Shown piece by piece: positions 1 through 60,447 of a stretch of DNA of 64,000 nucleotides. A program made the position numbers and the translations under genes. The notes below the pieces were generated by a model. The model saw only the letters and a list, made by a program, of their open reading frames with translations. It had not been told where the DNA came from and did no database searches. Source of the DNA: Pseudofabraea citricarpa (lineage: Eukaryota > Ascomycota > Leotiomycetes > Helotiales > Dermateaceae); the NCBI GenBank assembly GCA_029641185.1, contig JAPWGK010000025.1:1-64000 (forward strand). Reading direction: 5' to 3'. The number at the start of each line of letters is the position of its first letter. Position 1 is the stretch's first letter.

Positions 1-3000
1 GAATTGGCATTGCTTGTGCTCTGGACCAGAAGCGACTCCTGGAAAACAAGAGCATCCATCCCTGCTGCTGCAGTGGCATTTTTGGTAGCACTACTGATTA
101 TCGTTCTCTCATACACCGAGCAGAATCGATCTGTCCGACCATCCATACTTTTGAACTTATACTTGTTCTTCTCTCTGGTTTTGGATGTCCCACAGGCACG
201 GACTCTTTTTCTGCTCAGCCCTGACCGTGGCGGAATAGCCTCCGTATTTGTGGCTGCCGTGGCTGTCAAGCTAGTTCTCCTAATCTTGGAAGCCAAGGAA
301 AAACAAGCATATCTCAAGCCTCCTTATCACACTTGGCCACCCGAAGCAGTGGGTGGAATTTTTAACCAGTCCACATTCTGGTGGCTGAATTCATTGTTTT
401 ATAAAGGAGCGCGCAAAATTCTGGGCGTGGGCGATTTATACTCCGTCGACGAAGGTCTATGCTCTGAAATCTTGGGCCAAAGACTGATTGAGAACTGGAA
501 CACCAGATCAAAGCCCGAATCTCGAAAATCCCTCCCAATTGCACTAATCAAGACATTGAAATGGCCTCTGCTATATGTCGTATTTCCACGACTCTTCGTC
601 ACTGGCTTCAATTATTCTCAGCCATTTCTTATAACGGCGGCAATCAACTATGTGTCCAAACCTGAAACCTCTACACATGGAAAAAATGAGGGCTACGGTC
701 TTATTCTCTCAGCTTTCTTTATCTATGTTGGGATTGCGGTTGGTGATAGATGTCTCAATTTGCGAGAAACAAACTTGCTGATGTATCATAGGTTGCCAAC
801 GTCCAGTACAAACACCGTCTCTATCGTGCCATGACCTCACTTCGTGGTGCTATGGTAGTTCTGATCTATAACCATACGTTTAAGTTACGGCTTGGTATGG
901 GTGACGACACTGCAGCTGTGTCATTGATGAGTACAGATACAGATTCAATTGTAAATAGCATGGAGGCGCTTTACAACTGCTGGGCTTCCGTGATCGAAAT
1001 CTCAATTGGCGTCTACTTACTTGCACGGCAAATTGGATGGCAAGCTGTCATGCCTTTGGTCGTGGTTATACTAAGCACATTTGGAAGCGGTCGAGTTGCA
1101 AAACTAATTGGTCCCAGGATGCGAGGATGGATGGGCGCAGTTCAGAAAAGAGTATCAATGACTTCTTCGATGCTGGGTAATATGAAATCAATCAAGATGT
1201 TGGGGTTAAGCCAGGTGATGCACAAAATTATCCAGAAGCAAAGAATTCAAGAACTTGAGGAGCAAAAGCGCTTCCGGTGGATGATGGTGTGGCTTAATAT
1301 ATTCGGTAGTGGTTTTTAAATTCTGTTATATCTGTCCTCTGGCTAATGCTTTTCTGTAGCAATGTTGCCATCGATTTTAGGACCTGTGGTGACGTTCTCG
1401 GCTATTGCAATCCAGAGTGCTGTGCAAGGGGACCCATCTCTATCGGCGACAAAAGCATTCACATCTTATAGCATCATCTTGCTGATTACTGGACCGGCAA
1501 CCCAATTACTGGCAGCCGTTCCTTCTCTCTCTGCTGTTTTGGGAAATTCGGACCGTATCCAAAAGTTTCTACTTAATCCTGAATGGAAAGACGAGAGGAA
1601 AAGTACAGGAAGCGACAAAATTTCGCAGGCTTCGACCATGACAATTGAGATGGAAGAGTTGGAACCCTCTTTATCATCCGGCGACGGAGAAGTGCTTATC
1701 CGGATGAAAGACGTCTATGTCAAGCCTTCCCCCAAAGCAGATGCATCCTTAAGAAATGTGAATCTAGATGTCATGAAAGGTTCGAAGACCATGCTTCTTG
1801 GTCCTGTGGGTTGTGGTAAAACTACAATGTTGAAAGCATTGTTGGGTGAAATATCTTGCGAACAAGGAAATATTTTCATTCCAAGTAGTGACGGGGCGGC
1901 ATACTGTTCTCAAACGCCGTGGATTTTGAATACGACTGTGAAACAAAATATTACAGGATTTGAAGATGATGCAGGATTTGGGTTTGATGAAGATTGGTAC
2001 AAAACGGTACTGCATGCATGCTTGCTAGAGCAAGATTTGATACATTTTCCAAACGGAGATAATACCAATGTTGGTAGCAGAGGAGCTAAGATGAGTGGTG
2101 GTCAAAAACAACGTGTTGTAAGTGAATATTTCCTCATTTCAAATTGGTTGGCTGATGCTCATTCTGTTAAAGGCTCTTGCCAGAGCGATTTACTCCCGAA
2201 AAAGCCTTCTTATACTTGACGATGCTTTCAGTGCTCTTGACCATAAGACAGAAGAATCTATCATTAAAAGGCTCCTTGGAGATCACGGAATACTTAAAAA
2301 ATTGAAGACGACAGTTGTGTTAGCAACAAATACAAGTAAGAATTATTGCTATAATAGCATAAATATTTATTAAAATCTCGAATTTTAGATCGTCATCTAT
2401 CACTAGCTGATAAGATTATTGTCTTTTCTGCTGATGGAACTATTGTCTTCGATGGAAGTAATAAAGACCTTGAAAATGCAAGTCCATCTGTGGCTTCGCT
2501 TTTGCCTCCTTTAACCACACAAACGGAGGAAGGCACAACAAACGAAGAATTCAAAAGTGCAACCAAGTCATTTGCAGGTCCAAATCAGGATAAAATTGAA
2601 GACTTGACACGCAAAGTAGGTGATTTGTCTGTGTACAAGTACTACATTAAGTCTATTGGTTGGTCAAGAACCTTTATATTTTTAGCAGTTTCGGTTTTAG
2701 CAGTCTGCTGCAGACTGATTTCTCGTAAGTGACAACTCCAACCTTGCGTTCAGCCCAAGCTGATGACCATTCTTTACATAGAGGTTTGGTTGAAATGGTG
2801 GGCAGATGAAAATGGGGGGCAGATTGGGAAGTACATGAGTGTTTATATTATACTCTCATCTGGATTTTTGGTGTTCAATGCGGCATGTGTCTGGCATGTC
2901 CTCCTTGTCTATTGTTATATTGGGAGTGCTAATAAAAAGAAACAGGTCTATATTTATACACATAACTCCTAAAGCTGCAGCTGGCTTGCATGAGATATTG

Positions 3001-4549
3001 CTGAAAACAGTCATGTCCGCTCCACAACAATTCTTCTCGACTACGGACAGTGGAACAATTCTGAATCGCTTCAGTCAAGATATGACACTGATTGAGGGAT
3101 CTTTACCCACTGCAGCTCTAATCACTGCAACATATTTCATCACCACATTGGGCCAACTCGCTGTAATATCTACTGGGTCTGGATACATGGCTTTAACAAT
3201 TCCATTTGTCCTTGTTGTGATTTATATGTTGCAAAATATATACCTTCGCACATCCCGACAACTTCGGTTCATGGATCTCGAAGCAAAAGCGCCTATATAT
3301 TCCCATTTTACCGAAACAATTGAAGGTCTTTCGACAATCCGCGCATTTGGCCGAGAACATCAAGCCAAATCACTCAATCTTCAACGACTAGATGCGTCCC
3401 AAAGTCCGTATTATCTTCTCTACTGTATTCAAAGGTGGTTGAACCTTATACTTGATCTCATTGTTGCGGGACTTGGTGTCGTTTTGATTGGTATCGCGGT
3501 TGCCTTGAGAAGTCAAACAGACGGTGGGCTTCTTGGTGTCGCTCTTATCAATATTCTCAATTTTAACTTGAGCTTGACCTCGCTTGTCACATACTGGACA
3601 CAACTTGAAACTTCACTGGGTGCCATTGCTCGACTTAAGAATTTCGAAAATCAAACACCACAAGAGGCTCGATTGAGAGAGAAAGAGGTTCCTCCAGACA
3701 GCTGGCCACAACATGGTGCAATCGAGTTCCGTAATGTTATGGCCTCTTATGGGTAAGTATTTATCTCATACTTTTTCTACGTATGTTGCTAATATTATCC
3801 CCAGTTCTAATCCACCTGCTCTGAAAAATCTCTCATTCAAGATTGAACCGGGGAAGAAAGTAGGTATTTGTGGGCGAACTGGCAGGTACGTGTTATTCGA
3901 GGACTCTATCTTTTAGTTACAAGAGCGAAACTGATCATCTTCAAGCGGCAAGAGTTCCCTCCTGTTAGCACTGCTCCGGCTTTTAGAGATGGACGACTCG
4001 GGTACAATCACTATTGACAATCTGAATATTAAAGATATCCCAAGGGAGATAATACGTGACCGCTTAATCGCGGTTCCCCAGGAATCTTTTATTTTACCGG
4101 GCAGTGTGCGTCTAAATGCAGACCCAAGTTCAACCCTTCCGGACGATGTCATTGTGAAGGTGTTGGAACGAGTCAATATCTGGGATATCCTTGCGGCACG
4201 TGGTGGGCTTGATGCTGACCTTAAAGACGATACTTTATCGCAAGGTCAGCTGCAGCTCTTTGCACTTGCCCGCGCAATTCTGCATCGACAGCGAACTAGT
4301 GCCAAGATCCTGATCATTGATGAGGCTACTAGTAATATTGATTACTCAACAGATCAATTGCTACAACAAGTCATCAAAGAGGAATTTACAAACAAAGGAT
4401 CTACGGTCTTGACGATTGCTCATCGTCTTGAATCTATTCGAGACAGTGACGTTGTCCTTGTTTTAGAGAGGGGTAAGATCGTTGAGAGTGGCAGGCCTGA
4501 TTTGATACTTGGTAGAAAAATGGGGGAGTTACAACTCCCAACGTTGTAA
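1..4549 (+). CDS. ABCC-type (MRP) multidrug ABC transporter, 5' part cut by window edge
   Basis: Full ABC exporter of subfamily C, expected in the plasma or vacuolar membrane, exporting amphipathic or conjugated compounds. This copy lacks exon 1 and the start of exon 2; the complete copy is at 55558-60447. Modelled exons are 1-738, 792-1305, 1360-2117, 2173-2335, 2389-2724, 2782-about 2913, about 2975-3752, 3805-3885 and 3946-4549. NBD1 shows Walker A GPVGCGKT (near 1800), signature MSGGQKQR (near 2091) and Walker B LLILDDAFSALD. NBD2 shows Walker A GRTGSGKSS split by the intron at 3886-3945, signature LSQGQLQLF, Walker B ILIIDEATSNID and H-loop IAHRL. NBD1 carries Asn where an H-loop His is usual (ATNTN near 2324) and Asp at the catalytic Glu position, the latter common in ABCC NBD1. 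The frame changes between about 2900 and 2975, and I could not settle the intron there. Confidence 0.9.
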
Positions 4550-5123
4550 AGTGCGATTACTCAAGTCACAAAATCTATACTCACACCGACTTGTGGTACA
4601 CCTGCTTGAATTACGATTGTCGATTCAGCTTGTTGTACCCTGCTTCTTGCGCCGATCTGTGAGATTTACGTACATGCTATTTGTGACACAAAAGATTATA
4701 TGTAATATATACTAAACTACTTATCCGGGAACGGCTAATGCAAGGCAGCTAAGCTGTGTGCACTTGGTAAGCGTGGATTAAGTGCTTATCTGACAGGACG
4801 CTACTGTACAGTGAGCAACTAAGTCGGCTCGATCCCTGTCGGTTAAATTGTGGAGAGCACAATTCCTGTTACGGATAGCGATTACAATGAGAGCACAACG
4901 AGGGTACTAATCTACGTCAAGAATGAAGATGTCGAGCTAGCACGAAGACACCTGTCGACTGGTAGCAATCTTATCATTTGGCCTAGCTGAACTTTGCACC
5001 GTTTACTCTGATCTCCTGGTTTTCCAGTGACGCATTATTTTGTTTTCAACTATTCTGAAGTACGAAGGAACCATATGTGTGCCGGAGTTGCATTATTTAT
5101 GCACACAAGTATCAAACACAGCA
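4550..5123. other. Intergenic region between ABC transporter and UstYa-like gene
   Basis: No supported coding region. It holds the 3' flank of the transporter and the promoter side of the gene starting at 5124. No clear TATA box was seen. The mirror stretch is 54984-55557. Confidence 0.6.
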
Positions 5124-5879
5124 ATGGGACTTGAGAAGCATCACTACGAACCGGTGGAAGGGACTAACGCTGAGAACAATCGATCGAATCGACTTAAATA
5201 CATACTTACATGTCTCGGCATCCTGATGGTTCTTTGTGTAGGAGGTGCGGGTTTTCTTCTTGGAGCTAAACTGTCGTCCAGAACTCCATTCGAGATAGAC
5301 TGTTGTACTCCCACCCCTGACCAATGCAAAACTTGAATCTGATGGTTATGTAGTTCCGAAAGTTTCATTAACTTTTGAGTCCAACTCCACATTCCGCCAA
5401 CGTCCATCGGATCTCTCTGCACCTATAGAGGATATATGGGGACAGTTATATCCTCATGATCTCGGTCTTCTCAAAAACGGTGTTTTCGACTACCCAGACA
5501 AAGACCCCAAGAGAATGGTGTTCAGCGGCGTGCATCAAATGCATTGTGTGGTAAATCTTCTTCTTGAATAGTTACTGAGGACGCAGAGGGCTAATTTATA
5601 ATTTGTCAGGAATCGCTTTACCGAGGGTACTTTGAAGGTTACGACGCTCGCCAAGCGGAAGCAGAGGGAACGGATATCTCAGGGTTCCCAACGATGATAA
5701 CCCCTGAACATGTATTACATTGCGTTGAGTATTTGAGACAGAGTCTATTTTGCCATGCTGATGTTACCATGGAGGATGAAGATCTTGGGTTTGGGATTGT
5801 GCACGAGTGTCGTGACTGGTGGAGTATGATCGCGTGGGTGAACAAGAGGAATGAGCGGCGATCAAGTATTAGAGGGTGA
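5124..5879 (+). CDS. UstYa-family (DUF3328) oxidase-like protein
   Basis: Model of 215 residues with introns 5305-5353 and 5551-5609. A short cytosolic N-terminus is followed by one membrane segment around residues 30-55 (YILTCLGILMVLCVGGAGF). The lumenal part carries the two family hallmarks: HQMHC at residues 121-125 and HCVEYLRQ starting at 163, followed by SLFCHAD. Members of this family (UstYa/UstYb in ustiloxin, cyclochlorotine and asperipin clusters) catalyse oxidative cyclisation or modification of peptide backbones. The ATG at 5124 is preferred over upstream in-frame codons because it puts the charged N-terminus directly before the membrane segment. The neighbouring ABCC exporter suggests a secondary-metabolite context. 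Which substrate it acts on cannot be told. Confidence 0.82.
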
Positions 5880-6353
5880 CGGTCGAGACTGAAGGGATTT
5901 GGGATCTTCTTGGTATAAAGTGACGGGAGGACTTTATATAGAGGGAGATATGTCACGTGTTAAACACGGTGTAACTTTCCCCCGTAGAATATGGCATCCA
6001 TTGCATCTATTTATCGAACCAGACCTCACTTGTTCACCTTTTCACCTTCTCACCCCCTCGCCTCCTCCCTCGCCTCTCCACTGTCCGAATGGCAAAGCCA
6101 CGAACCCACGAATATTGCTAGGAGCGAGGTTTTCCTTCTTTAACAAAGGACGTACAAGGACGTTAGAGGAAATGCAGGAACCAGAGATGTATGGCAGCCC
6201 CATCCTTCCAGATACTTCTGGCCGAGAGAAAACTATACATTAACTATACGCCTATATAGTGCAATTTAGATGCGGCACTTCCCTACACTCTCAGCCATCA
6301 AATGCTGTACGAACACACATCCTCACAAATCTACTTGCCTTGCACCGAGAAGA
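5880..6353. other. Intergenic region with a probable core promoter
   Basis: No coding region is supported. The stretch has a pyrimidine-rich block near 6045-6085 and a TATA-like box near its end (6253-6259). The mirror stretch is 53754-54227. Confidence 0.55.
6253..6259 (+). promoter_or_regulatory. TATA-like box (TATATAG)
   Basis: It lies 95 bases before the ATG at 6354 but only 11 before an alternative ATG at 6270. This favours 6354 as the start of the downstream gene. The mirror site is 53848-53854. Confidence 0.4.
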
Positions 6354-7267
6354 ATGCCAGCGATCAGGTGGCTCACTGGGCTTACCGAGCTCATCGCCAA
6401 CCAGATGCTGTGGGCCATAAGACGGAGTTTGGTAGTCTATCTCGTGTTGGGCACCATTCACACCGTGTCCTGCCTCTACCCCGTCAAGTTCGACCTTGGA
6501 CTCTGCACCGAATACATCCCAGAAGCGACGGACAGGATGACGCCCGAGCAGCTCCCCACACCGATGCAAAATCTGGCCAGCCCTACCGACGAAGGATATG
6601 ATCTTCTCGGCGCAGACATTGCCAACAAGGCCACAAGTTGGACGAGTTCCGCCTCGGTCTGTTCTGTGGGCAATGCAGATGGGCGTTGATCGTGGGCCAG
6701 GAAACAGCATCGGTCGATTTTGCAAGCATAATGCGCACAGAACACGGTCTAGTGGACGAGCTCGATATGTACAGTACGCATTACGATGCCACACGCCAGC
6801 TTATCACAGCGACTACCGATGTCATTCTTGAGGGGTTAAAACACAGCGGCCAGTGGCTCACCTGTGAACAGAGCGTGGCGTCTTCCGCATTATCACGCCA
6901 AGTCACGACTCTCGTCGAAACACCCGTGAAAGAGATGGACCAAATGGTCAAGCGTGCCCACGAAGCTGGGTTGCAAGTTGAGCATTTGAACAGAGCCATG
7001 CGCCAGGTCCAGAGACATATTGCCAACGAATGCCTCGATACGACGCCCGCACACGCCGTGAAATGTGACCTTGTCGACAACTTCCACCGGGTTGGATGCA
7101 CAGTCGACAACATGAATGATTACTGTGTGGATTACGCCAAAAGCTTTCAGATATGGGGCCAGATTTTGCACTATCAAAAGCTTCAGTGGCTAGAGGTCGA
7201 CGCTATTATACAGATGGCGGGTGCAGGTTGGGACGGACAAGCCGAGAATCAGGAGAAGACAAGGTGA
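6354..7267 (+). CDS. Unknown membrane-anchored helical protein, 289 aa model
   Basis: I do not recognise the family. The model uses ATG 6354 and an intron at about 6657-6700, where the reading frame changes; the frame before it reaches a stop at 6687-6689. Residues about 28-45 (RRSLVVYLVLGTIHTVSC) form one hydrophobic segment, consistent with an anchor. The rest is strongly helical and polar (for example ALSRQVTTLVETPVKEMDQ and HLNRAMRQVQRHIANE) with several Cys. It converges with the 561-residue gene, whose stop is 99 bases away. Both have a hydrophobic N-terminal part followed by long helical stretches, so they could be a functional pair; that is inference. The base composition is visibly more GC-rich than the flanks. 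Confidence 0.6.
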
Positions 7268-7366
7268 TGCGATGAGCAGGAAAAGGTCAATGAGAATAGA
7301 TTTGCGGTTTGCTCCGTTGTCTAGGTATGCAAGAAATTATCCACACGACAAAGTTGGTCACCACCT

Positions 7367-9052
7367 TTACTGGGTCCGCTTCTCACTCAACTGGCGCGCA
7401 TTCAGGTAACATTTCTCCAAGTCAGCCTCTGCAGGCTTCGCCCACTTCCCGGCCAGGCGGGCTTCTCGGCGCACCTCTATCGTACACGCCTTCGACTCCC
7501 ACATTCCTAGCTTTCGCTCTATGCTACGCAGCGCCTCGATATAGATCTGCCTCGAGATCTCTGGGTCCTGATCGGTGATCTGGCCCTTGAGCATGAAGCT
7601 GGTGAAGTCACCCCACATGCGTAGCTGGTCCGTGAGCATGTCGCGCGATAGCTGGAGCTGGCCCAGGTGGGTGATGCAGTTCTCCTTGATGGCCGCTGTG
7701 TCTTCGTACTCAGCCGGCCGCGCAGGCAGATGGGGTTCGGAGCGCATGCGCTGGAAGAACCACTTGGCCTCAAAGGCGCGCATGCTGGCGTTGCGGTCCA
7801 CTTCCCAGATCCTATCGGCTTCCACCTCGATGTTGTGGAGGATTTTCTGCAGCTTGTCAACCTGTTGTATCTCTTCCTTCGACGTGGTCATGAGCACATC
7901 GACCTGTTCGATCAGTTCTTTGAGCTTGTCGTTCACCAGCCTGCTGAAGCTCGTGTAGCGCAAGCGAAGAGAGTCCGTCATCTTGCTGTCTTTGCTCTCG
8001 GCCAGCCGGGCGACCAGGTGATTGACGGCCATGTGCAGCAGGAAATAGAGGCCGCTGACGTCGATGCTGTACCCAGTCAACTCGTTGGCGTGGACCGAGG
8101 CGATCTCGATGACCTTGCCCAGCGCCGCGACGGCCTCGTCAAGTCCAATTGGACGGGGGTGCTGATATCTCCATTTCGCTCGAACGCTCAGGAACTCGTC
8201 GCGTGTTGCACGAAGCTCGATTGCTTTCTCCTCGACCTGCTCGGCCAGAGCGACTGTCTCAAACAAACTGCCGGGATCTGCCAGACTCGTGAGGTGTTTC
8301 GATACTTCTTCGGCCGTGATGGCCGGTATGAGTTGCGTAGAAGGGGATCGCTCTGGCTGCGGCGGCTGCGATAGACAGATGCCATAGCCAAACGTATTGT
8401 CGATCGCGACCACATATTGGTTGAAGCAGATCAGCCCGTCGGCGGGCGTCAGCAGTGGTGCAAACCGGGTCTGGTCTACGCACCCACGCACAACGTAGAC
8501 AGCAAGCCAAACCAAGACAATCCACTGGACGAGCGCCATGGTCCATGGAAGGAACAGCGAGGAGAAGATATGGAAGAGCAGACGTAGCGTCAATAACGCA
8601 ACATGGCATGCTACCAGCAACATCTCCCTCGCCTGGTTGAAGCACTCTTGCTGGCCTCGCTGGACCTGAGCCAGCCACATGCCCACTGCTGGACTTGTTA
8701 TCAAGCTGTGGAATGCTGTGACGGCGTGCAAGAGCCAAGTGTAGACGCTGATCATGTTTCTTCTGCATGCCCCATATAACACCAGTGCTCGTTGCCGTGG
8801 CGTCGTGGGTCGGATCTCGAGGAGGGGACCGTGGAAGTTGGCCAGCATGTGTTCATCTGGGAGAGAGACGCGTCGGTCTTCCTGGTGCTCGATCGATCCC
8901 AATGTCGGGACCGAAGCAGCGCGAGTGCGTCCAGTCGGCGGGAAGGGAAGCTTCGCCATGTCTGCATTCCAATCCGGATCGGAGATGTTTGGCATGTTGA
9001 TGTTGTCGTCGTTTGGAGCGTGCGGCCATTCTGATTGGACGTTGCGTGGCAT
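7367..9052 (-). CDS. Unknown multi-pass membrane/coiled-coil protein, 561 aa
   Basis: Intronless coding region with ATG at 9050-9052. Residues 1-90 are polar and probably disordered (Pro/Arg/Asp rich). Hydrophobic helices follow at about 99-120 and 140-190, the clearest being ALVQWIVLVWLAVYVVRG. After a loop with Cys comes a long helical region (about 255-540) rich in Glu, Lys, Leu and Arg, with heptad-like stretches such as LKELIEQVDVLMTTSKEE. No catalytic motif was recognised. Codon use is GC-rich at third positions, unlike the AT-rich neighbourhood, so this gene and its convergent neighbour stand out as a compositional island. Expression is plausible from a TATATAAA element about 295 bases upstream. 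Function is unknown. Confidence 0.75.
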   Translation of the reverse strand: MPRNVQSEWPHAPNDDNINMPNISDPDWNADMAKLPFPPTGRTRAASVPTLGSIEHQEDRRVSLPDEHMLANFHGPLLEIRPTTPRQRALVLYGACRRNMISVYTWLLHAVTAFHSLITSPAVGMWLAQVQRGQQECFNQAREMLLVACHVALLTLRLLFHIFSSLFLPWTMALVQWIVLVWLAVYVVRGCVDQTRFAPLLTPADGLICFNQYVVAIDNTFGYGICLSQPPQPERSPSTQLIPAITAEEVSKHLTSLADPGSLFETVALAEQVEEKAIELRATRDEFLSVRAKWRYQHPRPIGLDEAVAALGKVIEIASVHANELTGYSIDVSGLYFLLHMAVNHLVARLAESKDSKMTDSLRLRYTSFSRLVNDKLKELIEQVDVLMTTSKEEIQQVDKLQKILHNIEVEADRIWEVDRNASMRAFEAKWFFQRMRSEPHLPARPAEYEDTAAIKENCITHLGQLQLSRDMLTDQLRMWGDFTSFMLKGQITDQDPEISRQIYIEALRSIERKLGMWESKACTIEVRREARLAGKWAKPAEADLEKCYLNARQLSEKRTQ

Positions 9053-9123
9053 GTTTTTGTGTAGAGAAGGGGTGAAGCTGCGAAGTCCAATTTGCTACAA
9101 GATGAGAGGGTGATGGCGTGATT

Positions 9124-9171
9124 GAGGATGAAGATGAAGGATGAGGATGAAGATGAATATAAGGATGGAAG
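9124..9171. repeat. Imperfect GGATGA/AGATGA microsatellite in a 5' leader
   Basis: Purine-rich tandem hexamers on the plus strand (GAGGATGAAGATGAAGGATG and onward). They lie 71-119 bases upstream of the minus-strand ATG at 9052, so the transcript would carry a pyrimidine-rich leader. The mirror is 50936-50983. Confidence 0.6.
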
Positions 9172-10340
9172 ATCAATTTGTTGTGGGCGCCGCCTAGGTA
9201 TGCTCCCGGAGTGCAAACAGAAGTTCTAGGTCTGGGAAGTAAGAGGACATGGATTGAGGGCTACTTTCTTTGTCTTACTTTTGTTTCGTTCCACTCCACT
9301 ACACTCCACACCCCCCTTCTTTATTCCGTATCTATGGTTTTTATATAAAGAGCGAACGTTTTTCTCTTGAATAGGAATTCGACTCTTTAGAACTCACGTG
9401 GTCCACCGCATGACTAGGTTTGCCCTGTTTGATGGCTCCTCGAGCTATATAAGCTCTTGCAACCCCTGTAGCTAGCTCTTCAGCCCTTCAATCAGCCTCT
9501 TTCCTCTTTTATATTCACCGATTCTGTGTTGCCCTTTAATCTTTTTCCCCTCCCAACCAACTCATAAGCCCGTTTTTTTTTGGTTGCGTAAAACCTGTCT
9601 ATCACAAAATATGCTATGTCTTGCTGATAGTAATCTGATCAGATCTACAAGCCTTATCTTATCTTTATAAGACTGCTTCTTTTTACGCGTGCATGCATAT
9701 TGCTTTTGCACATTGGTTCCTCCGTTACAGGAGCTACCACTCTTCAACCACCTATTCCATCAATGCGCACCGATATCAGTCCTTTACGTATTATTTTCCC
9801 GCCTTTATTTTTAGATAATCTGTGGCCGAGTTGTCCAAAGGTTCAACTATAACAAAAAGGAGCCATACGAAAGTTTCCCGGGACGATCTTAAAAGGGAAG
9901 GAATCGATCATCCTCTTCCACGACAATGTCCTAGAAAATTGACTGGATTGGATTTCATTGACAAACTCCTAATTAGTTTGATACTACGGGAGGATCTTCC
10001 GAAGTAAAAACGAGTATTCGTTGATCACAGGGACCTTGGGAATTATAAAAGGCCTTTTTGTTTTACTCCGGTTGTATTTTCATTAACCTCTGTAGAATAC
10101 CCTTTACTTGATAGCATATGTATGATTTTCTAGGTGATCAAACTGGTGGGAATAACTCCCGCGTTATGAAAACGGTGTTGCTAGTGTTGACCTCTAAAAC
10201 ATTGCACCCTCTGGTTTCCCACCTTCTAGACATAATATAAGCCAATTGGTGGACTGTTTGTAAGACTATTTTCTTTCTTTTTTTTTTTAAAAAAAATACC
10301 CCCCTTCGGCGGTTTTAACATAGCTTATTTTGAACGCATT

Positions 10341-10416
10341 GAATTATCAAACCAGAGACCCCAAGACTAAATCATGCCCCGGATTTTATAAAGCATTTAG
10401 CCATTTGAGCTAGACC
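10341..10416 (-). other. tRNA-like relic or tRNA-derived SINE fragment
   Basis: Read on the minus strand, an A-box-like element TAGCTCAAATGGC is followed about 48 bases later by a B-box-like element GGTTTGATAATTC. I could not fold a complete cloverleaf with a matched acceptor stem, so a functional tRNA is unlikely. A degraded tRNA or SINE head fits better. A second A-box-like element, TGGCCGAGTTGTCC, lies at 9823-9836 on the plus strand. The mirror is 49691-49766. Confidence 0.3.
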
Positions 10417-11713
10417 GGAAGAAATTGATAACATTTCTCCCCCTCCTTTTGCATTCATCCTAGGTAGTAGTAGTTGCTAACGTAGGCTAACTTGATCCTT
10501 GCAAAGGTGGTATCAGATGCAGTAACACATTCAAATTTACGGAGGGGAGTTTATAAAGTACCCCTGTTATAAGAAGTGGTATATAGAGTAGTCTAAGAGA
10601 ATCAGTATGCATGACGGCAATTGCCATGTGAATACTGATTATTTTTCATACCGTGTACAGTACTATAATTTTTCAGATATATCAAATAATATATGAAAAT
10701 CCAATGCTTTTATTAACCAAAATATCGCTCGATATCAAAAGATTACAAGGTAATTATATGCAACTTAAAAATCGAAGACCGATAACATTAAGAACAGTAG
10801 TAAAATGTAGAAATCTAATAACTCGTAACTTATTTACGCTTGATACAACTGTAAATGTAGCACCGAAGAAGTTAAAGATTCTAACATGTCGCTACCAGAC
10901 CGCTCTCTTCGTGGGGGTAAACCCGGAACGGACAGTAAACATAGAAGAAATACAGTCGAAAGTAAACATAGTAGAAAGAGATACGTATGTATATACCAAA
11001 AGAAAATGATCAAGAAATTACCACTGTTGATTCTACCTAATATGATATAATATACTAGTGTCGCTTGTGTTAATTTCTGGAACCTGGCGTGTTATACATC
11101 CAGGAAGCAATTACTATTTCGGCCTACCTGTGTGAAATGCGGGGAATGCTAACCTAATTTCACTTTTAGCCGACAAATTTAAGTTCCAAATAGTGACCTT
11201 CGATAGCTTGGTAACCTACCAAACTGGATAAATACCCAGATCTGAGCAAGTGCCGTTCTAATTTATCCGGTCGCGGGTCTCGTTTGGAGAAATACGTCCA
11301 CGCTGCCAAGTCGGCAGTATTCAAGCAATGGTCGAATGATTTTTTGGGAAATGCGACGTAAGGGAACAGTTGAAGGTTCATAAAGAGCCCCCAGAATAGG
11401 CTGTTGTAGCTCGCATAGCGGGTAATTTGTCCCTTTGGATCTACAATAGATTTGACCGAGTGGCGAGGCTGGTCGCTTAATATTTAATTTCTTGCAACTT
11501 AAATCAAGTGATCACAAAGTACAACCCTGAGGTAGTAGATGGTAACAACACTGCCGGCTGCAGATACATTTAATATCCAGCTTTAAACTTTTGGTCTTAT
11601 GATCTCTACAGACTCTCGGGTAAGCGGCTTGTGTCTTCGTTAAAAACATCCAACTTCTACAGAAGTTGTACCAGATCTTCCGCGGATATCTCCTTTTTAT
11701 CAAACTCAACATC

Positions 11714-20537: not shown

Positions 20538-20554
20538 CGAGACAGGATCACTGC

Positions 20555-49766: not shown

Positions 49767-51054
49767 AATGCGTTCAAAATAAGCTATGTTAAAACCGCCG
49801 AAGGGGGGTATTTTTTTTAAAAAAAAAAAGAAAGAAAATAGTCTTACAAACAGTCCACCAATTGGCTTATATTATGTCTAGAAGGTGGGAAACCAGAGGG
49901 TGCAATGTTTTAGAGGTCAACACTAGCAACACCGTTTTCATAACGCGGGAGTTATTCCCACCAGTTTGATCACCTAGAAAATCATACATATGCTATCAAG
50001 TAAAGGGTATTCTACAGAGGTTAATGAAAATACAACCGGAGTAAAACAAAAAGGCCTTTTATAATTCCCAAGGTCCCTGTGATCAACGAATACTCGTTTT
50101 TACTTCGGAAGATCCTCCCGTAGTATCAAACTAATTAGGAGTTTGTCAATGAAATCCAATCCAGTCAATTTTCTAGGACATTGTCGTGGAAGAGGATGAT
50201 CGATTCCTTCCCTTTTAAGATCGTCCCGGGAAACTTTCGTATGGCTCCTTTTTGTTATAGTTGAACCTTTGGACAACTCGGCCACAGATTATCTAAAAAT
50301 AAAGGCGGGAAAATAATACGTAAAGGACTGATATCGGTGCGCATTGATGGAATAGGTGGTTGAAGAGTGGTAGCTCCTGTAACGGAGGAACCAATGTGCA
50401 AAAGCAATATGCATGCACGCGTAAAAAGAAGCAGTCTTATAAAGATAAGATAAGGCTTGTAGATCTGATCAGATTACTATCAGCAAGACATAGCATATTT
50501 TGTGATAGACAGGTTTTACGCAACCAAAAAAAAACGGGCTTATGAGTTGGTTGGGAGGGGAAAAAGATTAAAGGGCAACACAGAATCGGTGAATATAAAA
50601 GAGGAAAGAGGCTGATTGAAGGGCTGAAGAGCTAGCTACAGGGGTTGCAAGAGCTTATATAGCTCGAGGAGCCATCAAACAGGGCAAACCTAGTCATGCG
50701 GTGGACCACGTGAGTTCTAAAGAGTCGAATTCCTATTCAAGAGAAAAACGTTCGCTCTTTATATAAAAACCATAGATACGGAATAAAGAAGGGGGGTGTG
50801 GAGTGTAGTGGAGTGGAACGAAACAAAAGTAAGACAAAGAAAGTAGCCCTCAATCCATGTCCTCTTACTTCCCAGACCTAGAACTTCTGTTTGCACTCCG
50901 GGAGCATACCTAGGCGGCGCCCACAACAAATTGATCTTCCATCCTTATATTCATCTTCATCCTCATCCTTCATCTTCATCCTCAATCACGCCATCACCCT
51001 CTCATCTTGTAGCAAATTGGACTTCGCAGCTTCACCCCTTCTCTACACAAAAAC

Positions 51055-52740
51055 ATGCCACGCAACGTCCAATCAGAATGGCCGCACGCTCCAAACGACG
51101 ACAACATCAACATGCCAAACATCTCCGATCCGGATTGGAATGCAGACATGGCGAAGCTTCCCTTCCCGCCGACTGGACGCACTCGCGCTGCTTCGGTCCC
51201 GACATTGGGATCGATCGAGCACCAGGAAGACCGACGCGTCTCTCTCCCAGATGAACACATGCTGGCCAACTTCCACGGTCCCCTCCTCGAGATCCGACCC
51301 ACGACGCCACGGCAACGAGCACTGGTGTTATATGGGGCATGCAGAAGAAACATGATCAGCGTCTACACTTGGCTCTTGCACGCCGTCACAGCATTCCACA
51401 GCTTGATAACAAGTCCAGCAGTGGGCATGTGGCTGGCTCAGGTCCAGCGAGGCCAGCAAGAGTGCTTCAACCAGGCGAGGGAGATGTTGCTGGTAGCATG
51501 CCATGTTGCGTTATTGACGCTACGTCTGCTCTTCCATATCTTCTCCTCGCTGTTCCTTCCATGGACCATGGCGCTCGTCCAGTGGATTGTCTTGGTTTGG
51601 CTTGCTGTCTACGTTGTGCGTGGGTGCGTAGACCAGACCCGGTTTGCACCACTGCTGACGCCCGCCGACGGGCTGATCTGCTTCAACCAATATGTGGTCG
51701 CGATCGACAATACGTTTGGCTATGGCATCTGTCTATCGCAGCCGCCGCAGCCAGAGCGATCCCCTTCTACGCAACTCATACCGGCCATCACGGCCGAAGA
51801 AGTATCGAAACACCTCACGAGTCTGGCAGATCCCGGCAGTTTGTTTGAGACAGTCGCTCTGGCCGAGCAGGTCGAGGAGAAAGCAATCGAGCTTCGTGCA
51901 ACACGCGACGAGTTCCTGAGCGTTCGAGCGAAATGGAGATATCAGCACCCCCGTCCAATTGGACTTGACGAGGCCGTCGCGGCGCTGGGCAAGGTCATCG
52001 AGATCGCCTCGGTCCACGCCAACGAGTTGACTGGGTACAGCATCGACGTCAGCGGCCTCTATTTCCTGCTGCACATGGCCGTCAATCACCTGGTCGCCCG
52101 GCTGGCCGAGAGCAAAGACAGCAAGATGACGGACTCTCTTCGCTTGCGCTACACGAGCTTCAGCAGGCTGGTGAACGACAAGCTCAAAGAACTGATCGAA
52201 CAGGTCGATGTGCTCATGACCACGTCGAAGGAAGAGATACAACAGGTTGACAAGCTGCAGAAAATCCTCCACAACATCGAGGTGGAAGCCGATAGGATCT
52301 GGGAAGTGGACCGCAACGCCAGCATGCGCGCCTTTGAGGCCAAGTGGTTCTTCCAGCGCATGCGCTCCGAACCCCATCTGCCTGCGCGGCCGGCTGAGTA
52401 CGAAGACACAGCGGCCATCAAGGAGAACTGCATCACCCACCTGGGCCAGCTCCAGCTATCGCGCGACATGCTCACGGACCAGCTACGCATGTGGGGTGAC
52501 TTCACCAGCTTCATGCTCAAGGGCCAGATCACCGATCAGGACCCAGAGATCTCGAGGCAGATCTATATCGAGGCGCTGCGTAGCATAGAGCGAAAGCTAG
52601 GAATGTGGGAGTCGAAGGCGTGTACGATAGAGGTGCGCCGAGAAGCCCGCCTGGCCGGGAAGTGGGCGAAGCCTGCAGAGGCTGACTTGGAGAAATGTTA
52701 CCTGAATGCGCGCCAGTTGAGTGAGAAGCGGACCCAGTAA
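51055..52740 (+). CDS. Unknown membrane/coiled-coil protein, 561 aa, mirror copy
   Basis: Mirror of 7367-9052. A TATATAAA element lies near 50759, about 295 bases upstream, and the leader carries the pyrimidine-rich hexamer repeat at 50936-50983. Confidence 0.75.
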   Translation: MPRNVQSEWPHAPNDDNINMPNISDPDWNADMAKLPFPPTGRTRAASVPTLGSIEHQEDRRVSLPDEHMLANFHGPLLEIRPTTPRQRALVLYGACRRNMISVYTWLLHAVTAFHSLITSPAVGMWLAQVQRGQQECFNQAREMLLVACHVALLTLRLLFHIFSSLFLPWTMALVQWIVLVWLAVYVVRGCVDQTRFAPLLTPADGLICFNQYVVAIDNTFGYGICLSQPPQPERSPSTQLIPAITAEEVSKHLTSLADPGSLFETVALAEQVEEKAIELRATRDEFLSVRAKWRYQHPRPIGLDEAVAALGKVIEIASVHANELTGYSIDVSGLYFLLHMAVNHLVARLAESKDSKMTDSLRLRYTSFSRLVNDKLKELIEQVDVLMTTSKEEIQQVDKLQKILHNIEVEADRIWEVDRNASMRAFEAKWFFQRMRSEPHLPARPAEYEDTAAIKENCITHLGQLQLSRDMLTDQLRMWGDFTSFMLKGQITDQDPEISRQIYIEALRSIERKLGMWESKACTIEVRREARLAGKWAKPAEADLEKCYLNARQLSEKRTQ

Positions 52741-52839
52741 AGGTGGTGACCAACTTTGTCGTGTGGATAATTTCTTGCATACCTAGACAACGGAGCAAAC
52801 CGCAAATCTATTCTCATTGACCTTTTCCTGCTCATCGCA

Positions 52840-53753
52840 TCACCTTGTCTTCTCCTGATTCTCGGCTTGTCCGTCCCAACCTGCACCCGCCATCTGTATA
52901 ATAGCGTCGACCTCTAGCCACTGAAGCTTTTGATAGTGCAAAATCTGGCCCCATATCTGAAAGCTTTTGGCGTAATCCACACAGTAATCATTCATGTTGT
53001 CGACTGTGCATCCAACCCGGTGGAAGTTGTCGACAAGGTCACATTTCACGGCGTGTGCGGGCGTCGTATCGAGGCATTCGTTGGCAATATGTCTCTGGAC
53101 CTGGCGCATGGCTCTGTTCAAATGCTCAACTTGCAACCCAGCTTCGTGGGCACGCTTGACCATTTGGTCCATCTCTTTCACGGGTGTTTCGACGAGAGTC
53201 GTGACTTGGCGTGATAATGCGGAAGACGCCACGCTCTGTTCACAGGTGAGCCACTGGCCGCTGTGTTTTAACCCCTCAAGAATGACATCGGTAGTCGCTG
53301 TGATAAGCTGGCGTGTGGCATCGTAATGCGTACTGTACATATCGAGCTCGTCCACTAGACCGTGTTCTGTGCGCATTATGCTTGCAAAATCGACCGATGC
53401 TGTTTCCTGGCCCACGATCAACGCCCATCTGCATTGCCCACAGAACAGACCGAGGCGGAACTCGTCCAACTTGTGGCCTTGTTGGCAATGTCTGCGCCGA
53501 GAAGATCATATCCTTCGTCGGTAGGGCTGGCCAGATTTTGCATCGGTGTGGGGAGCTGCTCGGGCGTCATCCTGTCCGTCGCTTCTGGGATGTATTCGGT
53601 GCAGAGTCCAAGGTCGAACTTGACGGGGTAGAGGCAGGACACGGTGTGAATGGTGCCCAACACGAGATAGACTACCAAACTCCGTCTTATGGCCCACAGC
53701 ATCTGGTTGGCGATGAGCTCGGTAAGCCCAGTGAGCCACCTGATCGCTGGCAT
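52840..53753 (-). CDS. Unknown membrane-anchored helical protein, 289 aa, mirror copy
   Basis: Mirror of 6354-7267, with exons 53451-53753 and 52840-53406. Confidence 0.6.
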
Positions 53754-54227
53754 TCTTCTCGGTGCAAGGCAAGTAGATTTGTGAGGATGTGTGTTCGTAC
53801 AGCATTTGATGGCTGAGAGTGTAGGGAAGTGCCGCATCTAAATTGCACTATATAGGCGTATAGTTAATGTATAGTTTTCTCTCGGCCAGAAGTATCTGGA
53901 AGGATGGGGCTGCCATACATCTCTGGTTCCTGCATTTCCTCTAACGTCCTTGTACGTCCTTTGTTAAAGAAGGAAAACCTCGCTCCTAGCAATATTCGTG
54001 GGTTCGTGGCTTTGCCATTCGGACAGTGGAGAGGCGAGGGAGGAGGCGAGGGGGTGAGAAGGTGAAAAGGTGAACAAGTGAGGTCTGGTTCGATAAATAG
54101 ATGCAATGGATGCCATATTCTACGGGGGAAAGTTACACCGTGTTTAACACGTGACATATCTCCCTCTATATAAAGTCCTCCCGTCACTTTATACCAAGAA
54201 GATCCCAAATCCCTTCAGTCTCGACCG

Positions 54228-54983
54228 TCACCCTCTAATACTTGATCGCCGCTCATTCCTCTTGTTCACCCACGCGATCATACTCCACCAGTCACGACAC
54301 TCGTGCACAATCCCAAACCCAAGATCTTCATCCTCCATGGTAACATCAGCATGGCAAAATAGACTCTGTCTCAAATACTCAACGCAATGTAATACATGTT
54401 CAGGGGTTATCATCGTTGGGAACCCTGAGATATCCGTTCCCTCTGCTTCCGCTTGGCGAGCGTCGTAACCTTCAAAGTACCCTCGGTAAAGCGATTCCTG
54501 ACAAATTATAAATTAGCCCTCTGCGTCCTCAGTAACTATTCAAGAAGAAGATTTACCACACAATGCATTTGATGCACGCCGCTGAACACCATTCTCTTGG
54601 GGTCTTTGTCTGGGTAGTCGAAAACACCGTTTTTGAGAAGACCGAGATCATGAGGATATAACTGTCCCCATATATCCTCTATAGGTGCAGAGAGATCCGA
54701 TGGACGTTGGCGGAATGTGGAGTTGGACTCAAAAGTTAATGAAACTTTCGGAACTACATAACCATCAGATTCAAGTTTTGCATTGGTCAGGGGTGGGAGT
54801 ACAACAGTCTATCTCGAATGGAGTTCTGGACGACAGTTTAGCTCCAAGAAGAAAACCCGCACCTCCTACACAAAGAACCATCAGGATGCCGAGACATGTA
54901 AGTATGTATTTAAGTCGATTCGATCGATTGTTCTCAGCGTTAGTCCCTTCCACCGGTTCGTAGTGATGCTTCTCAAGTCCCAT
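54228..54983 (-). CDS. UstYa-family (DUF3328) protein, mirror copy
   Basis: Mirror of 5124-5879. Exons are 54803-54983, 54557-54753 and 54228-54497. On this side its full neighbourhood is visible: ABCC transporter, bZIP-like regulator and a second UstYa protein follow within 9 kb. Confidence 0.82.
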
Positions 54984-55557
54984 TGCTGTGTTTGATACTT
55001 GTGTGCATAAATAATGCAACTCCGGCACACATATGGTTCCTTCGTACTTCAGAATAGTTGAAAACAAAATAATGCGTCACTGGAAAACCAGGAGATCAGA
55101 GTAAACGGTGCAAAGTTCAGCTAGGCCAAATGATAAGATTGCTACCAGTCGACAGGTGTCTTCGTGCTAGCTCGACATCTTCATTCTTGACGTAGATTAG
55201 TACCCTCGTTGTGCTCTCATTGTAATCGCTATCCGTAACAGGAATTGTGCTCTCCACAATTTAACCGACAGGGATCGAGCCGACTTAGTTGCTCACTGTA
55301 CAGTAGCGTCCTGTCAGATAAGCACTTAATCCACGCTTACCAAGTGCACACAGCTTAGCTGCCTTGCATTAGCCGTTCCCGGATAAGTAGTTTAGTATAT
55401 ATTACATATAATCTTTTGTGTCACAAATAGCATGTACGTAAATCTCACAGATCGGCGCAAGAAGCAGGGTACAACAAGCTGAATCGACAATCGTAATTCA
55501 AGCAGGTGTACCACAAGTCGGTGTGAGTATAGATTTTGTGACTTGAGTAATCGCACT

Positions 55558-58500
55558 TTACAACGTTGGGAGTTGTAACTCCCCCATTTTTCTACCAAGT
55601 ATCAAATCAGGCCTGCCACTCTCAACGATCTTACCCCTCTCTAAAACAAGGACAACGTCACTGTCTCGAATAGATTCAAGACGATGAGCAATCGTCAAGA
55701 CCGTAGATCCTTTGTTTGTAAATTCCTCTTTGATGACTTGTTGTAGCAATTGATCTGTTGAGTAATCAATATTACTAGTAGCCTCATCAATGATCAGGAT
55801 CTTGGCACTAGTTCGCTGTCGATGCAGAATTGCGCGGGCAAGTGCAAAGAGCTGCAGCTGACCTTGCGATAAAGTATCGTCTTTAAGGTCAGCATCAAGC
55901 CCACCACGTGCCGCAAGGATATCCCAGATATTGACTCGTTCCAACACCTTCACAATGACATCGTCCGGAAGGGTTGAACTTGGGTCTGCATTTAGACGCA
56001 CACTGCCCGGTAAAATAAAAGATTCCTGGGGAACCGCGATTAAGCGGTCACGTATTATCTCCCTTGGGATATCTTTAATATTCAGATTGTCAATAGTGAT
56101 TGTACCCGAGTCGTCCATCTCTAAAAGCCGGAGCAGTGCTAACAGGAGGGAACTCTTGCCGCTTGAAGATGATCAGTTTCGCTCTTGTAACTAAAAGATA
56201 GAGTCCTCGAATAACACGTACCTGCCAGTTCGCCCACAAATACCTACTTTCTTCCCCGGTTCAATCTTGAATGAGAGATTTTTCAGAGCAGGTGGATTAG
56301 AACTGGGGATAATATTAGCAACATACGTAGAAAAAGTATGAGATAAATACTTACCCATAAGAGGCCATAACATTACGGAACTCGATTGCACCATGTTGTG
56401 GCCAGCTGTCTGGAGGAACCTCTTTCTCTCTCAATCGAGCCTCTTGTGGTGTTTGATTTTCGAAATTCTTAAGTCGAGCAATGGCACCCAGTGAAGTTTC
56501 AAGTTGTGTCCAGTATGTGACAAGCGAGGTCAAGCTCAAGTTAAAATTGAGAATATTGATAAGAGCGACACCAAGAAGCCCACCGTCTGTTTGACTTCTC
56601 AAGGCAACCGCGATACCAATCAAAACGACACCAAGTCCCGCAACAATGAGATCAAGTATAAGGTTCAACCACCTTTGAATACAGTAGAGAAGATAATACG
56701 GACTTTGGGACGCATCTAGTCGTTGAAGATTGAGTGATTTGGCTTGATGTTCTCGGCCAAATGCGCGGATTGTCGAAAGACCTTCAATTGTTTCGGTAAA
56801 ATGGGAATATATAGGCGCTTTTGCTTCGAGATCCATGAACCGAAGTTGTCGGGATGTGCGAAGGTATATATTTTGCAACATATAAATCACAACAAGGACA
56901 AATGGAATTGTTAAAGCCATGTATCCAGACCCAGTAGATATTACAGCGAGTTGGCCCAATGTGGTGATGAAATATGTTGCAGTGATTAGAGCTGCAGTGG
57001 GTAAAGATCCCTCAATCAGTGTCATATCTTGACTGAAGCGATTCAGAATTGTTCCACTGTCCGTAGTCGAGAAGAATTGTTGTGGAGCGGACATGACTGT
57101 TTTCAGCAATATCTCATGCAAGCCAGCTGCAGCTTTAGGAGTTATGTGTATAAATATAGACCTGTTTCTTTTTATTAGCACTCCCAATATAACAATAGAC
57201 AAGGAGGACATGCCAGACACATGCCGCATTGAACACCAAAAATCCAGATGAGAGTATAATATAAACACTCATGTACTTCCCAATCTGCCCCCCATTTTCA
57301 TCTGCCCACCATTTCAACCAAACCTCTATGTAAAGAATGGTCATCAGCTTGGGCTGAACGCAAGGTTGGAGTTGTCACTTACGAGAAATCAGTCTGCAGC
57401 AGACTGCTAAAACCGAAACTGCTAAAAATATAAAGGTTCTTGACCAACCAATAGACTTAATGTAGTACTTGTACACAGACAAATCACCTACTTTGCGTGT
57501 CAAGTCTTCAATTTTATCCTGATTTGGACCTGCAAATGACTTGGTTGCACTTTTGAATTCTTCGTTTGTTGTGCCTTCCTCCGTTTGTGTGGTTAAAGGA
57601 GGCAAAAGCGAAGCCACAGATGGACTTGCATTTTCAAGGTCTTTATTACTTCCATCGAAGACAATAGTTCCATCAGCAGAAAAGACAATAATCTTATCAG
57701 CTAGTGATAGATGACGATCTAAAATTCGAGATTTTAATAAATATTTATGCTATTATAGCAATAATTCTTACTTGTATTTGTTGCTAACACAACTGTCGTC
57801 TTCAATTTTTTAAGTATTCCGTGATCTCCAAGGAGCCTTTTAATGATAGATTCTTCTGTCTTATGGTCAAGAGCACTGAAAGCATCGTCAAGTATAAGAA
57901 GGCTTTTTCGGGAGTAAATCGCTCTGGCAAGAGCCTTTAACAGAATGAGCATCAGCCAACCAATTTGAAATGAGGAAATATTCACTTACAACACGTTGTT
58001 TTTGACCACCACTCATCTTAGCTCCTCTGCTACCAACATTGGTATTATCTCCGTTTGGAAAATGTATCAAATCTTGCTCTAGCAAGCATGCATGCAGTAC
58101 CGTTTTGTACCAATCTTCATCAAACCCAAATCCTGCATCATCTTCAAATCCTGTAATATTTTGTTTCACAGTCGTATTCAAAATCCACGGCGTTTGAGAA
58201 CAGTATGCCGCCCCGTCACTACTTGGAATGAAAATATTTCCTTGTTCGCAAGATATTTCACCCAACAATGCTTTCAACATTGTAGTTTTACCACAACCCA
58301 CAGGACCAAGAAGCATGGTCTTCGAACCTTTCATGACATCTAGATTCACATTTCTTAAGGATGCATCTGCTTTGGGGGAAGGCTTGACATAGACGTCTTT
58401 CATCCGGATAAGCACTTCTCCGTCGCCGGATGATAAAGAGGGTTCCAACTCTTCCATCTCAATTGTCATGGTCGAAGCCTGCGAAATTTTGTCGCTTCCT

Positions 58501-60447
58501 GTACTTTTCCTCTCGTCTTTCCATTCAGGATTAAGTAGAAACTTTTGGATACGGTCCGAATTTCCCAAAACAGCAGAGAGAGAAGGAACGGCTGCCAGTA
58601 ATTGGGTTGCCGGTCCAGTAATCAGCAAGATGATGCTATAAGATGTGAATGCTTTTGTCGCCGATAGAGATGGGTCCCCTTGCACAGCACTCTGGATTGC
58701 AATAGCCGAGAACGTCACCACAGGTCCTAAAATCGATGGCAACATTGCTACAGAAAAGCATTAGCCAGAGGACAGATATAACAGAATTTAAAAACCACTA
58801 CCGAATATATTAAGCCACACCATCATCCACCGGAAGCGCTTTTGCTCCTCAAGTTCTTGAATTCTTTGCTTCTGGATAATTTTGTGCATCACCTGGCTTA
58901 ACCCCAACATCTTGATTGATTTCATATTACCCAGCATCGAAGAAGTCATTGATACTCTTTTCTGAACTGCGCCCATCCATCCTCGCATCCTGGGACCAAT
59001 TAGTTTTGCAACTCGACCGCTTCCAAATGTGCTTAGTATAACCACGACCAAAGGCATGACAGCTTGCCATCCAATTTGCCGTGCAAGTAAGTAGACGCCA
59101 ATTGAGATTTCGATCACGGAAGCCCAGCAGTTGTAAAGCGCCTCCATGCTATTTACAATTGAATCTGTATCTGTACTCATCAATGACACAGCTGCAGTGT
59201 CGTCACCCATACCAAGCCGTAACTTAAACGTATGGTTATAGATCAGAACTACCATAGCACCACGAAGTGAGGTCATGGCACGATAGAGACGGTGTTTGTA
59301 CTGGACGTTGGCAACCTATGATACATCAGCAAGTTTGTTTCTCGCAAATTGAGACATCTATCACCAACCGCAATCCCAACATAGATAAAGAAAGCTGAGA
59401 GAATAAGACCGTAGCCCTCATTTTTTCCATGTGTAGAGGTTTCAGGTTTGGACACATAGTTGATTGCCGCCGTTATAAGAAATGGCTGAGAATAATTGAA
59501 GCCAGTGACGAAGAGTCGTGGAAATACGACATATAGCAGAGGCCATTTCAATGTCTTGATTAGTGCAATTGGGAGGGATTTTCGAGATTCGGGCTTTGAT
59601 CTGGTGTTCCAGTTCTCAATCAGTCTTTGGCCCAAGATTTCAGAGCATAGACCTTCGTCGACGGAGTATAAATCGCCCACGCCCAGAATTTTGCGCGCTC
59701 CTTTATAAAACAATGAATTCAGCCACCAGAATGTGGACTGGTTAAAAATTCCACCCACTGCTTCGGGTGGCCAAGTGTGATAAGGAGGCTTGAGATATGC
59801 TTGTTTTTCCTTGGCTTCCAAGATTAGGAGAACTAGCTTGACAGCCACGGCAGCCACAAATACGGAGGCTATTCCGCCACGGTCAGGGCTGAGCAGAAAA
59901 AGAGTCCGTGCCTGTGGGACATCCAAAACCAGAGAGAAGAACAAGTATAAGTTCAAAAGTATGGATGGTCGGACAGATCGATTCTGCTCGGTGTATGAGA
60001 GAACGATAATCAGTAGTGCTACCAAAAATGCCACTGCAGCAGCAGGGATGGATGCTCTTGTTTTCCAGGAGTCGCTTCTGGTCCAGAGCACAAGCAATGC
60101 CAATTCCAAGCTAGCATACAAAATAGCAGTTCCCTAGCAAGATAATCAGCAAAGGGTTTGATAGAAACAAGTAGTGGTTGGCTTGATCATACCAGTTTCA
60201 AAAATCTCACATGATTTGGATATGTCTTGATGCTGGATTTATAGAGTTGCAACAGCCGCAACGGAACGAGCAAGAGGAATAGAGCAGATGGGCCGATGGA
60301 AAGAATACTCTGTTCGAAATAGAGTGTAAAATCAAAATTGTCGCGACAACCGACCACGGTCGGCCCAAAATCTGCGTCGTTTGACTGACACCAGCGAGGC
60401 GATATACCCGAGACGGCGAGAATGCGATAAGTATCATTTGTGGCCAT
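55558..60447 (-). CDS. ABCC-type (MRP) multidrug ABC transporter, complete copy
   Basis: Complete gene, about 1461 residues, the usual fungal ABCC length. Exons are 60193-60447, 59369-60133, 58802-59315, 57990-58747, 57772-57934, 57383-57718, about 57194-57325, 56355-57132, 56222-56302 and 55558-56161. The N-terminus contains FGPTVVGCRDNFDFTLYFEQ, typical of fungal ABCC proteins, followed by an extra N-terminal membrane domain (TMD0). TMD1, NBD1 (Walker A near residue 658, signature near 754), TMD2 and NBD2 (Walker A near 1256-1264, Walker B near 1381, H-loop near 1418) follow. Exon 1 and the first 27 bases of exon 2 lie beyond the part paired with the left arm. The exon 7/8 junction (57132-57210) is unresolved. 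With UstYa proteins and a regulator next to it, export of a secondary metabolite or peptide is a reasonable inference. Confidence 0.92.

What the first reader, a model, noticed from the sequence alone, without database searches (positions are those of the whole stretch)
1..60106. Near-perfect 60-kb palindrome around a telomere-like centre
Seen: every feature at x recurs at 60107-x on the other strand, without net indels, over 29878 bases, homopolymers included. Such identity over intergenic DNA means very recent origin or one locus represented twice. Candidates: fold-back (template-complement) long reads assembled through a chromosome end; a sister-chromatid telomere fusion giving an inverted-duplicated chromosome; or an inverted-dimer linear chromosome. 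I favour an artefact, but a real isochromosome-like fusion would be striking.
Basis: partly seen in the sequence, partly recalled or inferred. Interest (0 to 1): 0.85.

Follow-up and report, generated by a model that had tools for sequence, protein, structure and literature searches.

The report
Sequencing fold-back artefact at fungal telomere
The 60-kb mirror image at the start of this fungal contig is almost certainly one chromosome end read twice, forward and back, by a long-read sequencer and then assembled as if it were double, so it is a technical error and not a strange chromosome.

Summary
The palindrome is real in the assembled sequence: window 1-29878 is the exact reverse complement of 30229-60106. 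The 350-bp centre is a noisy telomere, a 92-bp non-telomeric core, and a noisy telomere on the other strand. The window is the START of contig C18 in a 43.99-Mb, 43-contig fungal genome, so the left arm runs out at the contig end. The same assembly has telomere-centred fold-backs on four other contigs (C2, C9, C12, C35). Their centres match a PacBio SMRTbell hairpin adapter plus barcode better than all 300 shuffles each, C12 most weakly. The outer parts of C2 and C9 run into non-biological sequence, for example 7098 consecutive bases without a C. I conclude that C18 is the same kind of artefact: a PacBio read that passed the telomere end and came back along the other strand. In C18 itself the adapter is not recognisable by the plain test (75 of 300 shuffles score as well) and only suggestive under an error model trained on its own telomere. 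A polymerase strand jump is therefore an open variant. No raw reads were available.

The parts
1..29878 (-). Distal (artefactual) arm: exact reverse complement of 30229-60106, starting at base 1 of contig C18, apparently inside an ABC-transporter gene
   Evidence: the gene at base 1 is inferred from the ABC domains at 2839-4549
29879..29900 (+). Last bases before the telomere on the distal side; differ from the proximal side at raw-read error level
29901..30005 (+). Noisy G-rich telomere reading (79% of bases match a TTAGGG array; clean telomeres elsewhere in this genome are TTAGGG)
30007..30098 (.). 92-bp non-telomeric core, imperfect inverted repeat (halves of 43 and 49 nt); possibly a degraded barcode plus hairpin adapter (suggestive only), or a strand-jump junction
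30034..30065 (.). Perfect 32-nt palindrome at the turning point
30099..30204 (-). Noisy C-rich reading of the same telomere (74% of bases match a TTAGGG array); agrees in register with the left half beyond all 95 rotations and all 500 shuffles
30205..30228 (.). Last bases before the telomere on the proximal side; differ from the distal side at raw-read error level
30229..60106 (+). Proximal (genuine) subtelomeric arm, continuous with the rest of contig C18

Best explanation
One chromosome end of an ascomycete fungus is represented twice. The turn was not cut, because the hairpin adapter was missed or because the polymerase jumped strand. At a telomere no other read continues outward, so the assembler accepted the fold-back as an extension of the contig. 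Polishing then made both arms identical, except in the last 350 bases, where raw-read noise remained. Shown: the exact arms, the noisy self-complementary centre, the distal arm ending at the contig start, and sister cases with adapter and barcode. Inferred: that C18's own turn was the adapter or a strand jump, and the assembly and polishing steps.
For: (1) The window is the first 64 kb of contig C18, and the distal arm ends at contig base 1. (2) Four other contigs have telomere-centred fold-backs: C12 centre 58,948 (contig bases 1-1500 and 54000-58742 match their mirrors exactly; the part between was not fetched); C9 centre 1,177,638 of 1,191,798; C2 about 8,456; C35 about 112,603 of 117,169. 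(3) Their centres match barcode + SMRTbell adapter + barcode: best scores 120 (C9), 87 (C2), 70 (C35), 48 (C12, reverse orientation), each above all 300 shuffles (highest 39, 34, 26, 37). The adapter letters are in PMC10936554 (passage) and the barcode is 'Barcode 2' of a PacBio workflow in PMC9096486 (passage). (4) Three places in the genome match the barcode with at most 1 mismatch, all at telomere junctions or ends: C9, C35 and the very end of C39. (5) The outer part of C2 has a 7098-base run without C, and C-free runs in the outer C9 pieces reach 1383 bases; the C35 arm is 79-81% identical to its mirror, raw-read level. (6) In C18 the arms are identical while the centre is noisy, and the two telomere halves agree in register (score 113; 95 rotations max 101; 500 shuffles max 91).
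Against: The C18 core does not match the adapter by the plain test: score 21, and 75 of 300 shuffles reach it. With an error model trained on C18's own telomere, the barcode + stem + 5' loop reference is reached by 2 and 5 of 500 shuffles (of query, of reference) for the left half and by 16 and 30 of 500 for the right half. With the 3' loop reference the counts are 9 and 48, then 137 and 166 of 500. So this is suggestive at most. C18's telomere is noisier and more G-rich than C9's or C12's. A perfect 32-nt palindrome in so noisy a stretch is not simply explained by two noisy passes. An intact adapter loop, allowing 3 mismatches, is found nowhere in the genome. No read depth was available.
Confidence: 0.95

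Rival explanations
1. A read artefact without an adapter at the C18 centre: a polymerase strand jump or other snap-back that gave a palindromic read. This is a variant of the best explanation with the same consequence (one locus counted twice). Its confidence is a share of the artefact case, not in addition to it.
For: The C18 core lacks a recognisable adapter by the plain test and has a perfect 32-nt palindrome at the turn. Polymerase strand jumps are listed beside missed adapters as read artefacts in PMC6977585 and PMC6304105 (passages).
Against: The four sister cases carry the adapter. A snap-back would not obviously add 43 and 49 nt of non-telomeric sequence on the two sides of the turn.
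Confidence: 0.25
2. A real inverted duplication: two sister telomeres fused head to head, giving a chromosome end with an interstitial telomere and an inverted copy of 30 kb or more.
For: The G-rich to C-rich order at the centre is what a telomere fusion gives. Exact arms would fit a very recent event.
Against: It would have to coincide with four adapter-bearing fold-backs in the same assembly. A fusion does not predict a 92-bp core that is an imperfect inverted repeat of itself, telomere halves that match in register, or noise confined to the centre. The outer arm ends at the contig start without a new telomere.
Confidence: 0.03
3. A natural covalently closed hairpin chromosome end, read through by the sequencer.
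For: A hairpin end read through would give a palindrome with an imperfect centre.
Against: Four other telomeres are plain TTAGGG arrays at contig ends: C1 both ends, C23 and C24. C39 ends in telomere plus barcode, as a ligated open end would. This is indirect: a contig end does not show whether the DNA end was open.
Confidence: 0.01

Closest known systems
Palindromic PacBio reads from missed SMRTbell adapters (described in the Pacasus paper, PMC6218980, passages seen)
   Same: A read with template followed by its complement, said there to be able to affect de novo assembly; here an inverted duplication at contig ends, with adapter and barcode at the turn in four sister contigs.
   Different: In C18 the turn is too degraded to show the adapter by the plain test, and the arms are exact.
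Polymerase strand jumps in PacBio reads (named beside missed adapters in PMC6977585 and PMC6304105, passages seen)
   Same: A palindromic read without a clear adapter, as at the C18 centre (that strand jumps give palindromes is recalled).
   Different: C18 has 43 and 49 nt of non-telomeric sequence on the two sides of the turn, and the sister cases have adapters.
Telomere-telomere (sister-chromatid) fusion, recalled
   Same: Head-to-head G-rich then C-rich telomere repeats between inverted arms.
   Different: The noise, the core and the sister cases point to the sequencer; depth could not be tested.

Membership tests
Missed-adapter or strand-jump PacBio fold-back artefact | Two arms that are reverse complements around one turning point | tested here: met
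   0 mismatches in 29878 pairs
Missed-adapter or strand-jump PacBio fold-back artefact | SMRTbell adapter (and barcode) at the turn in the window | tested here: inconclusive
   Plain score 21, reached by 75 of 300 shuffles; suggestive with a trained error model for one of two loop references
Missed-adapter or strand-jump PacBio fold-back artefact | The same artefact with adapter elsewhere in the same assembly | tested here: met
   4 of 4 other telomere fold-backs found (C2, C9, C12, C35) score above all 300 shuffles each; C12 is the weakest (48 against at most 37)
Missed-adapter or strand-jump PacBio fold-back artefact | Distal arm runs out at the contig end, without new unique sequence | tested here: met
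   Met for the window: C18 base 1 is mirrored exactly; C12 base 1 too. In C2 and C9 the outermost stretch is C-free sequence that did not match the mirror pieces compared
Missed-adapter or strand-jump PacBio fold-back artefact | Junction reads are only self-complementary fold-backs; arms at single-copy depth | not testable with these tools
   No raw reads
Real telomere fusion or inverted duplication | Doubled depth over the arms and independent junction reads | not testable with these tools
   No raw reads
Real telomere fusion or inverted duplication | Fused telomere repeats of the species' own kind (TTAGGG) | tested here: inconclusive
   Halves are 79% and 74% TTAGGG-like, separated by a 92-bp non-telomeric core
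Hairpin (closed) telomere | Covalently closed chromosome ends | tested here: inconclusive
   Indirect only: 4 plain TTAGGG contig ends, and C39 ends in telomere plus barcode as a ligated open end would

The most novel reading that the evidence does not exclude
C18 carries a real, very recent inverted duplication of its chromosome end, made by sister-telomere fusion, and only by coincidence sits in an assembly with four adapter fold-backs.
Probability: 0.03. Interest if true: 0.6.

Novelty: not a real feature. Interest (0 to 1): 0.06.

Why it matters
As biology it does not. As quality control it does: five of the ten telomere positions I know of in this assembly are fold-backs. By their coordinates, about 116 kb of false inverted duplication or junk (about 30 kb in C18, 59 kb in C12, 14 kb in C9, 8.5 kb in C2, 4.6 kb in C35) would inflate gene counts and could be taken for subtelomeric duplication.

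Tried and rejected
Adapter in the C18 core by plain alignment: not significant. Trained error model: suggestive for the 5' loop reference, weak or none for the 3' loop reference. Adapter loop pattern (23 nt) in the own genome with up to 3 mismatches: 0 matches, 2 for the reversed-pattern control; the adapter copies in the sister centres are too error-laden or cut to match it. C18 core as a known sequence: a 22-nt pattern gave 1 stretch in genome contigs (a Bdellovibrionales MAG, L046, not examined further) and 0 in viral contigs. C18 core elsewhere in the own genome: only itself. The 16-mer with up to 2 mismatches gave 58 places against 64 for the control, no excess. The barcode pattern with up to 2 mismatches gave 28 places against 22 for its control; I used only the 3 places with at most 1 mismatch and dropped the other 25.

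C-free stretch of C2 as the mirror arm with C removed: no BLAST match, and a local test at the C2 boundary was also negative (C removed: 116 against shuffles mean 108.5, max 128; the best variant, C read as T, 161 against max 165). The C9 tests were also without match, but the pieces compared may not have been the true mirrors. So these stretches are not explained as simple loss of C; I read them as failed base calling, an inference. One search failed partly on BLAST gap settings and was repeated. ARAGORN found no tRNA in the window. The last 300 bases of C18, printed, show no telomere array.

Literature: searches (20 of 302 papers listed; 20 of 42 listed; 8 of 8; 1 of 1) showed, by title and abstract start, no paper on adapter fold-backs capping telomere contigs. 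Only the passages cited were read. The general artefact is in print (PMC6218980, passages).

Full report
OBSERVATION. The palindrome is in the sequence as described. With mirror sum 60107, 29944 of 30053 pairs are complementary and all 109 mismatches fall in 29879-30053; the 24 neighbouring offsets tested give 25-27%. Bases 1-29878 are the exact reverse complement of 30229-60106. Self-BLAST of the window gives, besides the self match, one row: the inverted match over 1-60106. Chance is not an issue.

WHERE IT IS. The window is bases 1-64000 of contig C18 of a genome of 43,985,132 bases in 43 contigs; C18 is 666,755 bp. Base 1 is therefore a contig end, and the limit at 60106 is only its mirror. 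Of 9 ORF pieces scanned, 8 matched a Pfam family: ABC transporter (two pieces), glucuronoyl esterase with CBM1, esterase with CBM1, two APH-fold proteins and an NB-ARC/DUF7779 protein in the arm, and a UstYa protein beyond it. The left arm stops at base 1, apparently inside the ABC transporter gene; on the right the same reading frame runs 15 bases past 60106 and further ORFs on the same strand follow. The 1979 bp next to the centre were found only at the two mirror places.

CENTRE. Between the arms lie 350 bases: 22 noisy bases, 105 bases of G-rich telomere-like sequence, one base, a 92-bp core at 30007-30098, 106 bases of C-rich telomere-like sequence, and 24 noisy bases. Left and right halves are imperfect copies of each other. 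The telomere halves align in register with score 113, against at most 101 in 95 rotations and at most 91 in 500 shuffles. This is what two noisy passes over one molecule give. The telomere reading is poor: 79% and 74% of bases match a TTAGGG array, against 98% and 95% in C9 and 98% and 92% in C12.

SISTER CASES. The exact 24-mer of four TTAGGG units has 88 places, all listed, on eight contigs: C1 (both ends), C2, C9, C12, C23, C24, C35 and C39. C1 (both ends), C23 and C24 are plain contig ends, and C39 ends in telomere plus CTATACATGACTCTGC. The other five are fold-backs: C18, C12, C9, C2 and C35. In C12, 4743 consecutive pairs next to the centre and the first 1500 bases of the contig match their mirror exactly. 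In C9, 4809 consecutive pairs next to the centre match, but the last 1499 bases do not. The C2 fold-back is a palindrome of about 2.4 kb, that is about 1.2 kb a side, at 90% identity; the C35 arms are 79-81% identical.

ADAPTER. The four other centres match a reference of barcode, SMRTbell adapter and barcode with scores 120 (C9), 87 (C2), 70 (C35) and 48 (C12, reverse orientation). The highest shuffle scores are 39, 34, 26 and 37 (300 shuffles each). The adapter sequence is the one used for cutadapt in PMC10936554 (passage), and the barcode is Barcode 2 of a PacBio workflow in PMC9096486 (passage). C35 also has a long run of G inside the adapter. The outer part of the C2 fold-back has a 7098-base run without a single C, and the outer C9 pieces have C-free runs of up to 1383 bases; the longest C-free run in the window is 56 bases. 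Removing C from the mirror of C2 does not reproduce its stretch, so how it arose is not settled, but I hold such sequence to be non-biological.

C18 ITSELF. The core of C18 does not match the adapter by the same test (score 21, 75 of 300 shuffles as high). With substitution counts learned from its telomere, the left half fits barcode + stem + 5' loop better than most shuffles (2 of 500 and 5 of 500 as high) and the right half less well (16 and 30 of 500). The 3' loop reference fits weakly or not (9 and 48, 137 and 166 of 500). These comparisons are not independent. So the C18 turn may be a degraded adapter or a strand jump; the artefact reading rests mainly on the sister cases, the contig end and the noise pattern.

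KNOWN. Missed SMRTbell adapters are described as a source of palindromic reads that can affect de novo assembly (PMC6218980, passages), and missed adapters and polymerase strand jumps are listed as PacBio read artefacts (PMC6977585 and PMC6304105, passages). That a telomere favours acceptance of such a read, because nothing outvotes it, is my inference.

VERDICT. It is a sequencing and assembly artefact, with a small remaining chance of a real fusion that only reads or bench work can remove.

Noticed in passing
L033 (C2) 139-7236; L042 and L047 (C9): Long stretches without any C (7098 bases in C2; up to 1383 in the C9 pieces fetched) at the outer side of the fold-backs; in C2 not reproduced by removing C from the mirror arm.
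   Followed up: partly
L037 (C35), about locus 4560-4700: A long G homopolymer inside the SMRTbell adapter at the fold-back centre.
   Followed up: no
L038 (C39) last 16 bases: The contig ends in telomere followed by the PacBio barcode CTATACATGACTCTGC.
   Followed up: yes
window 62832-63572 (-): A UstYa-family protein (PF11807, E 4.4e-11) just beyond the mirrored stretch, possibly part of a secondary-metabolite cluster.
   Followed up: no
window 25215-26720 (-), copied at 33387-34892 (+): NB-ARC plus DUF7779 protein, an NLR-like subtelomeric fungal gene; 867 relatives at E 1e-3 or better among the 7993 candidates scored.
   Followed up: no
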